A DNA stretch of 64,000 bases, taken from assembly GCF_029017505.1 (NCBI RefSeq), contig NZ_JAQGEI010000018.1, positions 1-64,000 on the forward strand. The letters run 5' to 3'. Positions 9,351-58,155 of this stretch are shown in pieces. The notes below the pieces were generated by a model. It worked only from the letters and a program-made list of their open reading frames with translations. It did no database searches and was not told where the DNA came from. Numbering within the stretch: the first letter of the stretch is position 1; every line of letters begins with the position of its first letter. Source of the stretch: Sedimenticola hydrogenitrophicus. Its GTDB lineage: Bacteria; Pseudomonadota; Gammaproteobacteria; Chromatiales; Chromatiaceae. A program made the translations under genes and the position numbers.

Positions 9351-9914
9351 TCACTTCAGTCTGAAATCCTGTCCCGAGAGCCACGCCTCGATTGGCTGGA
9401 TGACGGGCGCTTGGCCGTTGGCAAAAAACCAGGAGTCCACGGCATACTGCTGCCGGGTCCGGGTATCCATGATGGTGGCGGTCCAGTGGATATTGAACAG
9501 CCAGGGATTGCGTCGCCGCCGCTCCTCTACCCGGTGCCATTTTAACAGGTTGTCCCGTGCCATGAGCTGCAGATAGGTGGTGGTGTTGCGTGACTCGGCG
9601 ATGCAGTCCAGCTGACCGCTCTCGGAGCCTTCGCCGTCGTTTTCCGGCAGGTCACGCCAATTATCCGTCTGTTCGCCCACCAGCTGCTCGAATCGGGCAA
9701 TGGCGGCCCGGATCTGTTGCCGTTCCTCCACGGCCGATCGGCTGGCAGAGAACAGGCTGCGGATCTCCCGCCATTGATCGGGAGGCAGTGTAACAGGCTT
9801 GAGGATGTCACAGTGATAATCGGTGCATGCCTCGAATTGGGGGGGGGAGGCCCAGGCATGCAGTTGACTGCCCGGGTAGAGACAGCATAACAGGGCAATC
9901 ACCCGGCGGTTCAT
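9351..9914 (-). CDS. Secreted cysteine-containing protein, paralogue of the preceding gene
   Basis: 187 residues from the ATG at 9914; this start makes a 4-base ATGA overlap with the stop of the gene before it and gives a good signal peptide (MNRRVIALLCCLYPGSQLHAWA). The mature part shares a clear ground plan with its neighbour at 9911-10687: a C-x4-C pair (CTDYHC), LPPDQWREIRSLF, an RxAIARFEQLVG helix, LDCI with NTTTYLQLM, then KWHRV and YAVDSWFFANGQAP. The pair therefore arose by tandem duplication. I do not recognise the family. Three cysteines and the WHR and DSWF motifs suggest a folded periplasmic domain, possibly an enzyme. Only three bases separate its stop from mnmA. Confidence 0.75.
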   Translation of the reverse strand: MNRRVIALLCCLYPGSQLHAWASPPQFEACTDYHCDILKPVTLPPDQWREIRSLFSASRSAVEERQQIRAAIARFEQLVGEQTDNWRDLPENDGEGSESGQLDCIAESRNTTTYLQLMARDNLLKWHRVEERRRRNPWLFNIHWTATIMDTRTRQQYAVDSWFFANGQAPVIQPIEAWLSGQDFRLK

Positions 9915-10687
9915 CGTGGGTCGGGACTCCACCCCTGCTTCCAATGCTCCAGCGGCAGGATTTCGGGGGCAATGCCGTTGTCATGAAACCAGGAGTCTAC
10001 CGCCCACAGGCGCCGATCCTCCCGCGCCTCGATCACCGCGGTGGTGTGCGGCCAGCCGAAGAAGAAAAAGCCGCGGGTCACCGGGTCCCTGAGCCGGTGC
10101 CAGCGCAGCAGACCGTCCTGCTGCAGCAGGTACAGGTAGCTGGTGGTGTTGGTGGACTCATCGATACAGTCCATGCGGTGGTCCAGCGGATTGTCGCTGG
10201 TTTCGTTGGCCCCCTTGTCGTTGGCGGTGCCGGTCATGCCGCCGATGATCCGCTCCAGCCGGGCCACGGCCTGACCGATCAGTCGGCGCTCCTCCTCGGG
10301 CGAGTGTGCGCCGGCGCGGAAAATGTCCCGGATCTCCTGCCAGCGATGATCCGGCAGGGCCAGCTGGCGGATCGATTGGCAGCTGTTGTCGAAGCAGATG
10401 GAGAAGTTGTCCGGGGTGGGGGTGGTGTTGATCTCCGGGCTGACGAACACCACGGCGTGGGCGCTGCCGGAGCCGGCGAGCAGCCACAGCATGAGGCAGA
10501 GACCGGCCAGTTTAGGACCCGCGCAAGAATAATTCCGTAGTACCGAGGGCGTTCCTGGGCCCCGCTGGCAAGGCACGCTTTGCAGGCAATGGTCGTTCCC
10601 TTGCCAAAAAGTGTAACGCCGCCAGCGGGGCCCAGGGGCGACCGAATACCGGAACTTATTCTTGCGCGGGTCCTTAGGCAAGGTCAC
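9911..10687 (-). CDS. Secreted paralogue whose N-terminus is extended by an in-frame palindromic element
   Basis: The reading frame runs from a GTG at 10687, inside the end of nudJ, to 9911. Codons 1-5 read MTLPK, then about 54 codons come from the element at 10515-10673, and the frame resumes KLAGLCLMLWLLAGSGSAHA. Removing the element and one copy of its TTA duplication rejoins MTLPK to KLAGLC and restores a normal signal peptide. Today either a long N-terminal extension is made, or translation starts at the ATG at 10492. The mature domain matches the neighbour: CFDNSC, LPDHRWQEIRDIF, MDCIDESTNTTSYLYLLQQ, RWHRL and WAVDSWFHDNGIAPEI. Function unknown. Confidence 0.72.
   Translation of the reverse strand: MTLPKDPRKNKFRYSVAPGPRWRRYTFWQGNDHCLQSVPCQRGPGTPSVLRNYSCAGPKLAGLCLMLWLLAGSGSAHAVVFVSPEINTTPTPDNFSICFDNSCQSIRQLALPDHRWQEIRDIFRAGAHSPEEERRLIGQAVARLERIIGGMTGTANDKGANETSDNPLDHRMDCIDESTNTTSYLYLLQQDGLLRWHRLRDPVTRGFFFFGWPHTTAVIEAREDRRLWAVDSWFHDNGIAPEILPLEHWKQGWSPDPR
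10515..10673. repeat. MITE-1 element copy 1 (159 bp), inserted in frame
   Basis: Ends GGACCCGCGCAAGAATAA and its near-inverse, flanked by TTA at 10512-10514 and 10674-10676. The right TTA is the stop codon (TAA) of nudJ on the minus strand. At 159 bases plus 3 duplicated bases it is a multiple of three. It reads open through the frame of the downstream secreted protein. Related copies: 42450-42608, 48234-48444, 57945-58155. Confidence 0.85.
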
Positions 10688-11123
10688 TGAGCAGTTCCAG
10701 GGGATAGCGGCAGCCGGCCAGGTAGTCGTCGATACAGCGCAGCACCATTGGGCTGCGCAGCCGCTGTGGATTGGCCGCCAGCTCCTCCCGGCTCAGCCAG
10801 ACCGCACGCAGGATGCCGTCGTCCAGCGGCAGTTCCGGTTGGTGGTCATGGCCGTTGCCGTGGAAGCAGAAGCGCAGGTAAGTGGTCTCCGCCGGGGGAA
10901 CCTGCCAGCGGTAGATGCCGACCAGGGATTGCGGTGTAAAGCCCCAGCGCGTCTCCTCCCGGGTTTCCCGGATAACGGCAGCGAGCAGGCTTTCCGCCTC
11001 CTCCAGGTGGCCGGCCGGCTGGTTGAATACCCGCTTGCCGTCGCGGGTGAGCTCTTCGACCATGAGAAAGCGCCCGGATCGTTCGATGATCGAGGCGACG
11101 GTGGTGTGGGGTGTCCAGATCAT
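10674..11123 (-). CDS. nudJ: Nudix hydrolase NudJ-like phosphatase
   Basis: 149 residues with a complete Nudix box, GHLEEAESLLAAVIRETREE, which binds Mg and hydrolyses nucleoside diphosphate-linked substrates. The E. coli orthologue in the same place (between rluE and mnmA) acts on thiamine pyrophosphate/HMP-PP and nucleoside di- and triphosphates. Start MIWTPHTTVASIIERSGRFL is typical. Its stop codon TAA coincides with the target duplication of the adjacent element, so the protein end is unchanged by that insertion. Assignment rests on the box and on synteny; substrate is inferred from the family. Confidence 0.92.
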   Translation of the reverse strand: MIWTPHTTVASIIERSGRFLMVEELTRDGKRVFNQPAGHLEEAESLLAAVIRETREETRWGFTPQSLVGIYRWQVPPAETTYLRFCFHGNGHDHQPELPLDDGILRAVWLSREELAANPQRLRSPMVLRCIDDYLAGCRYPLELLSDLA

Positions 11124-11166
11124 GGGTCTATTTTATCCTGAATTCTGTGCCGAGGCAGGGGTACTG

Positions 11167-11751
11167 TCAGCGACGCCTCTTGCCGATGGAGCGGGGGGCG
11201 AGTCCGTCGTCGGGCAACTCGATGAGCTGGGACTGGCCGGGTTGCAGCGCGTCCAGTTCCCAGTCGCCGATAGCGACGCGTACCAGGCGCAACGTGGGAA
11301 AGCCGATGGCCGCGGTCATGCGGCGAACCTGCCGGTTGCGGCCTTCACGTATCTCGATTTCCAGCCACTGGGTCGGGATATTGGCGCGGAACCGCACCGG
11401 TGGATTGCGTTCCCAGAGTATCGGTGGAGCGATCAGCCGGGCCCGTGCCGGCAGGGTTGGACCGTCTTTCAGTTCCAGGCCGTCGCGGAGTTGTTGCAGC
11501 GCTGCCCGGGCGGGGATGCCCTCAACCTCGGCCCAGTAGCGTTTCCAGGTCTTGGCACGCGGATTCGCCAGTCGGTGTTGCAGCTTGCCGTCATCGGTCA
11601 GCAGCAGCAGGCCCTCGCTGTCCCGATCCAGCCGCCCGGCCGGATAGACCCCTTTGGCGTGGATGAAATCGGCCAGTGTCGGGCGCCCTGACGGGTCGGT
11701 AAACTGGGTGAGTACGCCGTAGGGTTTATTGAACAGGATCAATCGGGACAT
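11167..11751 (-). CDS. rluE: 23S rRNA pseudouridine synthase RluE-type
   Basis: Isomerises a uridine of 23S rRNA (U2457 in E. coli) to pseudouridine. The start at 11751 gives 194 residues opening [17 protein letters not shown], the family N-terminus. The catalytic aspartate is D42 in [16 protein letters not shown]. Further conserved parts are [12 protein letters not shown] and the basic [21 protein letters not shown] motif. An in-frame extension to 11895 reads through repeat DNA and is not used. It is first in the rluE-nudJ-mnmA-hflD run. The RluE rather than RluB/F assignment follows from short length, the lack of an S4 domain and neighbours. Confidence 0.93.
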
Positions 11752-42449: not shown

Positions 42450-42608
42450 GGGCTCGCGCAAAAATAAGTTCCGGTATTCGGTCGCCACTGAACCCCTCCA
42501 TCGGCGTTACGCTTTTTGGCAAGGGAGCGGCCATAGCCTGCAAAGCGTGCCTTGCCGGCGTGGCCCAGTGACGCCCACGGTACTACGAAATTATTCTTGC
42601 GCGAGCCC
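42450..42608. repeat. MITE-1 element copy 2 (159 bp)
   Basis: Ends GGGCTCGCGCAA on both sides, flanked by TTA (42447-42449) and TTC (42609-42611), an imperfect duplication. It is opposite in orientation to copy 1. The interior shows the shared CAAAGCGTGCCTTGCC core. Confidence 0.82.
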
Positions 42609-44578: not shown

Positions 44579-44738
44579 GGGTCGCGGTAAAAATTAAAGT
44601 ATTCCAAGATCGCACAGCTATCGGTTTGCTCACAAGGCGTGCAAAGGGGCGCATAGCGGGCCTATGTAACCCTTTGCACAACGCCGTGAGCAGGCCGAGA
44701 GCGAAGCGAGATGGGATAGTTTATTTTTTTAGCGGCCC
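44579..44738. repeat. MITE-1-related element (160 bp) with TTA target duplication
   Basis: Ends GGGTCGCGGTAAAAATTAA and GGGCCGCTAAAAAAATAAA (other strand), flanked by TTA at 44576-44578 and 44739-44741. The end sequence and target resemble MITE-1, and the centre also has a GTGCAAAGGG-type palindrome, so it looks like a diverged subfamily. Confidence 0.7.
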
Positions 44739-48233: not shown

Positions 48234-48444
48234 GGGCCCGCGCAAGAATAATTCCGTAGTACCGAGGGCGTCACTGGGCCACGCCGGCAAGGCACGCTTT
48301 GCAGGCAATGGCCGCTCCCGGCCATCCATGGCCTCCGCGGCATAAGTCCATCCATGGACAAACCTGTTCCCTTGGCAAAAAGCGTAACGCTGGCGGCGGG
48401 GTTCAGTGGCGACCGAATACAGGAACTTATTTTTGCGCGAGCCC
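48234..48444. repeat. MITE-1 element copy 3 (211-bp form)
   Basis: Ends GGGCCCGCGCAAGAATAA and GGGCTCGCGCAAAAATAA (other strand), flanked by TTA at 48231-48233 and 48445-48447. Compared with the 159-bp form it has an extra 52 bases in the middle, containing CCATCCATGG palindromes. Same orientation as copy 1. Confidence 0.85.
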
Positions 48445-57944: not shown

Positions 57945-58155
57945 GGGCTCGCGCAAAAATAAGTTCCGGTATTCGGTCGCCACTGGACCCCGTCGGCGGC
58001 GTTACGCTTTTTGCCAAGGGAACGGCTTTGTCCATGGATGGACTTATGCCGCGGAGGCCATGGATGGCCGGGAGCGGCCATTGCCTGCAAAGCGTGCCTT
58101 GCCGACATGGCCCAGTGACGCCCTCGGTACTGCGGAATTATTCTTGCGCGAGCCC
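57945..58155. repeat. MITE-1 element copy 4 (211-bp form)
   Basis: Ends GGGCTCGCGCAAAAATAA and GGGCTCGCGCAAGAATAA (other strand), flanked by TAA at 57942-57944 and 58156-58158. The left TAA is the stop codon of the LolA-like gene. Same orientation as copy 2. It separates the LolA-like gene from the barrel gene. Confidence 0.87.

What the first reader, a model, noticed from the sequence alone, without database searches (positions are those of the whole stretch)
10515..10673. Palindromic element inserted in frame near the start of a secreted protein, exactly at the neighbour's stop codon
Seen: the 159-bp element is flanked by TTA duplications. Deleting the element and one duplication rejoins MTLPK with KLAGLCLMLWLLAG into a normal signal peptide starting at a GTG in nudJ. 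Element plus duplication equals 54 codons, so the frame is kept, and the nudJ stop codon is regenerated by the duplication. The insertion thus changed one protein and left the overlapping one intact. It recalls Rickettsia palindromic elements that insert inside genes. Whether the extended N-terminus is translated, or the internal ATG at 10492 took over, is open.
Basis: seen in the sequence. Interest (0 to 1): 0.78.

Follow-up and report, generated by a model that had tools for sequence, protein, structure and literature searches.

The report
Mobile hairpin extends exported proteins' signals
A small hairpin-forming mobile DNA element jumped exactly into the shared end and start of two overlapping genes of a sulfur bacterium, leaving the first protein whole and adding 54 amino acids in front of the export signal of the second; copies of it did the same in other genes, including one usually essential for building the outer membrane.

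Summary
Three other genomes of the genus Sedimenticola have the empty site, the distance from the Nudix stop to the host's FVS motif being shorter by exactly 162 nt; the sister S. hydrogenitrophicus shares insertion and open frame. It is one of 78 TIR-bounded copies found in this genome, 58 with a 159-bp core. Ends and TAA/TTA duplications resemble those of some ISAzo13-family insertion sequences (PF07592), yet PF07592 was found in 0 of 9 genus genomes: an orphan MITE. By my curation six copies here lie inside coding sequence, all in frame and open: five between start codon and signal-peptide core, one in a ferredoxin. In lptA (single-copy; usually essential, recalled) the target was again the upstream gene's stop codon (lptC), and no ATG/GTG/TTG remains in frame between old start and signal core, so translation through the element is the simplest reading. 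Best description: an ISAzo13-type MITE behaving like a Rickettsia palindromic element; new variant of a known kind.

The parts
10515..10673 (-). MITE core, 159 bp; '-' is the strand on which the host gene reads it
10512..10514 (.). target-site duplication TTA, host-gene side
10674..10676 (.). target-site duplication TTA = TAA stop codon of the Nudix gene
10515..10532 (+). terminal inverted repeat, ISAzo13-like (GGACCCGCGCAAGAATAA)
10656..10673 (-). terminal inverted repeat, other end
10563..10627 (-). central hairpin module with conserved internal loops, shared with other palindromes of Gammaproteobacteria
9911..10687 (-). host gene: secreted protein of unknown family, GTG start at 10687; 54 of its codons come from the element plus the duplicated site
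   Evidence: no Pfam or NCBIfam hit
10454..10510 (-). signal-peptide core and C-region of the host protein (LAGLCLMLWLLAGSGSAHA)
   Evidence: judged by eye, no signal-peptide predictor run
10490..10492 (-). internal in-frame ATG, inside the hydrophobic core; poor candidate start
10674..11123 (-).
42450..42608 (+). further copy of the element in the window, 159-bp core
48234..48444 (-). 211-bp variant of the element
57945..58155 (+). 211-bp variant of the element, in the TAA stop codon of a predicted gene

Best explanation
A non-autonomous transposon (MITE) with ISAzo13-type ends, moved in trans by an ISAzo13-family transposase not found in the genus drafts, inserted into a C-TAA-A target in an ancestor shared by this strain and S. 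hydrogenitrophicus. The target was at once the TAA stop of a Nudix gene and part of codons 4/5 of the overlapping secreted gene. The 3-bp duplication restored the stop; 159+3 nt = 54 codons, open in this frame, were added to the second protein between start and signal-peptide core. The host is now most likely made from the old GTG with a 54-residue basic extension of the signal peptide's n-region, removed with it on export. Shown: insertion, duplication, empty sites, frame, copy family, parallel cases. Inferred: ISAzo13 as mover, translation through the element, removal by signal peptidase. Survival is explained by tolerance: n-regions accept a positively charged extension, and the element's open frames encode basic peptides.
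For: Copies: 78 TIR pairs, 58 with 159-bp cores. Empty sites in 3 genomes and the same insertion in the sister. ISAzo13 link: GGGTTCGCGCAAGAATAAGT (0 mismatches to the degenerate MITE end) 28 nt behind the C-terminal part of a PF07592 gene in G117, and GGGCCCGCGAAAAAGTAACTCCC+TAA (4 mismatches) behind a partial PF07592 gene in G074; among 29 PF07592 loci, L138, L156 and L161 have weaker end pairs (4-6 mismatches of 20) about 1.3 kb apart with direct TAA or TTA duplications, L133 and L134 a pair without a demonstrable direct repeat. Parallel in-frame insertions before signal cores: lptA, an M16 peptidase, a TlpA-like redoxin, an EB_dh-domain protein; in the sister one likely (L209) and one possible (L197) more. 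lptA: TIGR03002 over cutoff, single copy, G001, G003, G004 without insert, inserted at the stop of a TIGR04409 lptC, no ATG/GTG/TTG in frame between old start and core. The six copies judged to lie in coding sequence keep an open frame. In the five signal-peptide cases of this genome the n-region charge from the old start is +9 to +15.
Against: PF07592 in 0 of 9 genus genomes (drafts, some incomplete), so mobilisation is inferred from relatives, and 24 of 29 PF07592 loci scanned showed no clear end pair of this kind. No detectable selection for open frames (stop-making private mutations 5 against 3.3 expected); element codons differ 2 synonymous / 4 non-synonymous between the two species, pN/pS about 0.66 against 0.22 and 0.14 for host and Nudix codons. 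The very stable mRNA hairpin just behind the start could hamper translation or be cut by RNase III. No expression data. Start codons were inferred from ORFs, upstream sequence and relatives; starts other than ATG/GTG/TTG were not examined.
Confidence: 0.78

Rival explanations
1. A MITE as above, but translation of the host restarts inside or after the element (GTG 22 codons before the core, or ATG 10492), so the N-terminus is not extended, or the hairpin silences the gene.
For: An in-frame GTG in the element gives an n-region of 22 residues, charge +3; the hairpin is extremely stable; element codons look relaxed.
Against: No Shine-Dalgarno-like sequence is visible before the inner GTG; ATG 10492 would leave no basic n-region; in lptA no inner ATG/GTG/TTG exists; the frame is open in both species.
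Confidence: 0.22
2. The extension has been recruited: the element-coded peptide or the mRNA hairpin regulates export or synthesis of the host protein.
For: Recurrence at signal-peptide n-regions; a structured central module found across genera.
Against: No sign of purifying selection on the element codons; lptA and TlpA insertions are absent from the sister; tolerance explains the distribution.
Confidence: 0.1
3. The element is not DNA of the ISAzo13 type but a REP-like or otherwise spreading palindrome.
For: No PF07592 gene found in the genus; the central module occurs in palindromes with different ends; only 5 of 29 PF07592 loci show a comparable end pair.
Against: Identical 3-bp flanks at 59 of 78 copies and defined terminal repeats, as in some PF07592 elements, and similar ends behind PF07592 genes in G117 and G074.
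Confidence: 0.12
4. Assembly or strain artefact.
For: Draft genome of 116 contigs.
Against: The same insertion is in another assembly, of S. hydrogenitrophicus, with 6 substitutions in 162 nt.
Confidence: 0.01

Closest known systems
Rickettsia palindromic elements (RPE)
   Same: About 150 bp, inserted in frame into coding sequences (PMC10969869, passages); palindromic by name.
   Different: Here ISAzo13-like ends and TAA/TTA duplications, a gammaproteobacterial host; most copies lie outside coding sequence; the coding insertions are mainly in signal-peptide n-regions; no selection for the frame detected. RPE sequences were not compared.
ISAzo13 family insertion sequences (Pfam PF07592)
   Same: Similar terminal repeats and TAA/TTA duplications in some members.
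   Different: No transposase gene; cores of 77-283 bp instead of about 1.3 kb; no PF07592 gene found in the genus.
QMITE1/QMITE2 of Coxiella burnetii
   Same: MITEs whose insertions alter protein ends and sometimes lie in frame inside ORFs (PMC5896051, passages).
   Different: Not compared in sequence; there an in-frame C-terminal extension of enhC is described, here N-terminal extensions before signal peptides.
Chunjie MITE of Geobacter uraniireducens
   Same: Insertion in an operon without disturbing it (title only, seen in a reference list).
   Different: Paper not read, sequence not compared.

Membership tests
ISAzo13-type MITE | terminal inverted repeats like those of PF07592 elements | tested here: met
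   ends behind PF07592 genes in G117 (0 mismatches) and G074 (4); weaker related pairs (4-6 mismatches of 20) in 5 of 29 PF07592 loci, none clear in 24
ISAzo13-type MITE | same target duplication (TAA/TTA) | tested here: met
   59 of 78 copies have identical 3-bp flanks; TAA or TTA direct repeats at L138, L156, L161; TAA/TTA, not direct, at L134; flank cut at L133
ISAzo13-type MITE | autonomous copy or transposase in the same genome | tested here: not met
   PF07592 in 0 of 9 genus genomes, drafts
MITE in general | short, multicopy, no transposase gene, TIRs, TSD | tested here: met
Rickettsia palindromic elements | palindromic, about 150 bp, inserted in frame in genes | tested here: met
Rickettsia palindromic elements | sequence membership in an RPE family | not tested
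   no RPE sequence was fetched
Rickettsia palindromic elements | encodes a conserved peptide | tested here: inconclusive
   52 of 58 copies are open in the window gene's frame, but private mutations show no avoidance of stops (5 against 3.3 expected; 55 mutations only)
Rfam-listed RNA family | match over gathering score | tested here: not met
   (window 9500-11500): 0 matches; (4 other loci): 2 weak matches below gathering

The most novel reading that the evidence does not exclude
An orphan ISAzo13-type MITE acts as a mobile in-frame N-terminal segment: it repeatedly lands in overlapping stop/start junctions and signal-peptide n-regions, and several exported proteins, LptA among them, are now made with a transposon-coded 54-71-residue basic n-region. 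Its central three-stem module is a structured unit shared by palindromes with different ends across Gammaproteobacteria and may be what the element carries for its own spread.
Probability: 0.45. Interest if true: 0.72.

Novelty: new variant of a known kind. Interest (0 to 1): 0.6.

Why it matters
A review passage calls in-frame insertion into genes unusually frequent for the Rickettsia elements and leaves its effect unexplored (PMC10969869). Here a gammaproteobacterium outside the Rickettsiales (free-living as far as I recall for the genus) shows the same with a recognisable type of transposon end, exact empty sites in close relatives, and lptA as a case in which no usual alternative start codon is available. 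That makes the question whether such inserted peptides are translated directly testable by N-terminal proteomics, and points to signal-peptide n-regions and overlapping gene junctions as permissive landing places.

Tried and rejected
Selection for an open frame in the family: a first simulation found fewer stop-bearing copies than expected in three of four frames tested and more in the fourth, but it ignored shared ancestry; with private mutations only the signal vanished (window frame: 5 observed, 3.3 expected), so it is not claimed.

Helper transposase in the own genome: neighbouring TIR ends up to 2500 bp apart were paired in the fetched stretches; the longest pair was 285 bp. PF07592 negative. 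L108, L113, L114, L118, L119, L120 carry single TIR-like sites without a recognised element and were not used.

Stop-codon targeting as a by-product of the C-TWA-G preference: the pentamer-matched null gives 4.5 against 21, but it rests on my own gene calls, and at CTWAG alone the background share is 4 of 27 non-internal sites; selection against other intergenic sites could also produce it. The lptC stop was missed by the gene caller, so 21 is a minimum.

Of the 23 copies classed 'inside', 5 are plain stop-codon cases; the other 18 went into. Ten of these were set aside because a likelier start lies behind the element (C4:14620, C8:104346, C12:41369, C12:67550, C22:78258, C21:54119, C26:47211, C34:29008, C37:22410, C23:63031), judged by eye; for the two C12 sites the script gave no read-through result, and C23:63031 (77-bp core, 80 nt inserted, frame lost) is the least certain. 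Two lie at 3' ends (C3:134890, C6:117548; in the latter the last residues change). In the sister, L211 and L212 are near 3' ends and L192 and L208 upstream of likelier starts.

Papers: searches for ISAzo13 (9 papers), MITE in-frame terms (6), palindromic element and signal peptide (46, 15 listed), Sedimenticola with MITE (0), the loop motif CGCGCCTTG (76, 10 listed, none relevant by title), N-terminal extension by MITE (8). Only passages of PMC9208149, PMC5896051 and PMC10969869 were seen; the rest as listings.

Full report
What was checked. The strand folds into one long hairpin of -107.1 kcal/mol, z -11.8.

Where it is. The genome (5.13 Mb, 116 contigs) belongs to the genus Sedimenticola by its relatives: named records holding the host gene are S. 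hydrogenitrophicus SB48 (97% identical protein, same insertion), S. selenatireducens DSM 17993 and BK-1, a BK-3 MAG filed as S. thiotaurini and two N3M bins, besides two distant alphaproteobacterial MAGs.

Empty site. From the Nudix stop codon to the conserved FVS motif there are 226 nt in this genome and G001 and 64 nt in G003, G004 and G007, exactly 162 less. In G003 the start reads MTLSKAASLCLLLWQLTGSGGANAVVFVS, against VTLPK[54]LAGLCLMLWLLAGSGSAHAVVFVS here. Of eight loci given to five gave a usable junction; G002 shows a host start without element but its Nudix end was not recognised, G008 gave no anchor, G005 is cut by its contig. G006 gave only a 38% match.

Family. A TIR-core pattern (one mismatch allowed) hits 166 times in the genome against 0 for the reversed control. 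In 74 fetched loci plus the window the ends were paired: 78 elements, 58 with a 159-bp core, the others 77-283 bp. The two flanking trinucleotides are identical in 59 of 78; in the orientable copies TAA/TAA occurs 39 times and TTA/TTA 14. The target consensus is C-TWA-G (C in 46, G in 50 of 78). With the stricter pattern the sister G001 has as many ends (66+65) as G000 (66+62), G003 one, and G002, G004 and G008 none; with the whole element G002 and G004-G008 also gave none. Similar elements of about 157 bp are in other genera of the same family: G032, G074, G099 and G139.

What moves it. In G117 a matching end (GGGTTCGCGCAAGAATAAGT) lies 28 nt behind the C-terminal part of a PF07592 gene, and in G074 GGGCCCGCGAAAAAGTAACTCCC followed by TAA lies behind another partial one. 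Of 29 further PF07592 loci scanned, five show end pairs of the same pattern about 1.3 kb apart (4-6 mismatches of 20, a loose threshold that also gives scattered chance hits): L138, L156 and L161 with TAA or TTA direct repeats, L134 with TAA/TTA, L133 with one flank cut; the other 24 show no clear pair. PF07592 was found in 54 of 194 family genomes but in 0 of 9 of the genus. So: a MITE with ends like those of one part of the ISAzo13 family, orphan in the drafts seen.

Where the copies sit. With a simple codon-model gene call, 21 of 78 insertions lie exactly in the TAA stop of a predicted gene; against a null matched for the five-base target the expectation is 4.5 (sd 2.0) among 59 non-internal sites with an exact TWA; in G001 it is 7 of 31 examined copies (40 of 136 candidates had been scored). 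The duplication then restores the stop, as here.

In-frame insertions. Eighteen insertions looked ORF-internal in the reconstructed empty sites. By my curation six are inside coding sequence and all six keep an open frame: the window gene; lptA (C9:26623); an M16 peptidase (C17:28514); a TlpA-like redoxin (C4:80213, 213 nt = 71 codons); an ethylbenzene-dehydrogenase-domain protein (C8:78593); and a 2Fe-2S ferredoxin (C24:6898), where the 54 codons fall between CGEGK and CGNC (families). The first five lie between start codon and hydrophobic core. Relatives: lptA and TlpA sites are empty in G001, G003 and G004; M16 is filled in G001 and empty in G003 and G004; the ferredoxin is uninterrupted in G001 and gave no match of its own in G003 and G004; the EB_dh protein had no match in these three genomes. 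The sister adds one likely case (L209) and one possible (L197); no relative was checked for these and neither piece has a Pfam hit. In lptA the target was the TAA stop of lptC (TIGR04409 over cutoff) overlapping the lptA start, the same geometry as in the window.

Is the extension translated? For the window gene a second in-frame GTG lies in the element, without visible Shine-Dalgarno; ATG 10492 is inside the core. For lptA no ATG, GTG or TTG in frame remains between the old ATG and the core, lptA is single-copy, its protein is over the LptA cutoff, and LptA is essential in many Gram-negatives (recalled, not tested here). If LptA is needed here, it is made through the element unless an unusual start is used. 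This is the strongest, though indirect, argument for the window gene. Between the two species the element codons differ at 6 of 162 nt (2 synonymous, 4 not; pN/pS about 0.66), in the M16 copy at 3 (1 and 2), against pN/pS of 0.14-0.22 for Nudix, host and M16 codons: a tolerated, not a conserved, stretch. The family shows no selection for an open frame.

Reading. The insertion looks like a by-product of a MITE's preference for C-TWA-G and stop codons; it survives where a gene end is restored by the duplication and where an overlapping or nearby frame can carry 54 more, mostly basic, residues. Signal-peptide n-regions are such places. This works like a Rickettsia palindromic element; membership in those families was not tested and is unlikely.

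Noticed in passing
window 10563-10627 (-), 42496-42560, 48282-48398, 57991-58107, and weakly 44627-44689: The MITE's centre is a three-stem hairpin module with variable stems and fixed internal loops (GTTGC ... CTTGNCAA ... CTGC ... CGCGCCTTG). Thirteen hand-picked, hand-trimmed examples show covariation (score 0.510, shuffled mean 0.167; slid by one column 0.325; middle helix 88% paired, outer only 53%). A model from them hits 36 of 114 gammaproteobacterial genomes, own included, some with over 40 hits, in palindromes with quite different ends (CTAGTG..CACTAG, three-way-junction shapes). No Rfam family over gathering in the loci tested.
   Followed up: partly
L084 (G000:C24:6898): The element sits in frame inside the cluster-binding loop of a 2Fe-2S ferredoxin, between CGEGK and CGNC; the sister genome's copy is uninterrupted.
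   Followed up: partly
own genome, 21 of 78 copies, e.g. window 57945-58155: Copies lie in TAA stop codons between four and five times more often than a pentamer-matched null predicts (21 against 4.5); cause unknown.
   Followed up: partly
window 9351-9944 (-): A tandem paralogue of the host gene (39% identical) lies next to it in 8 of 9 genus genomes; neither has a Pfam family.
   Followed up: no
C4:53431, C4:81177, C37:49695 (L062, L063, L097): Longer variants of the element (265-283 bp) carry extra hairpins inside the central part, as if smaller units were nested in it.
   Followed up: no
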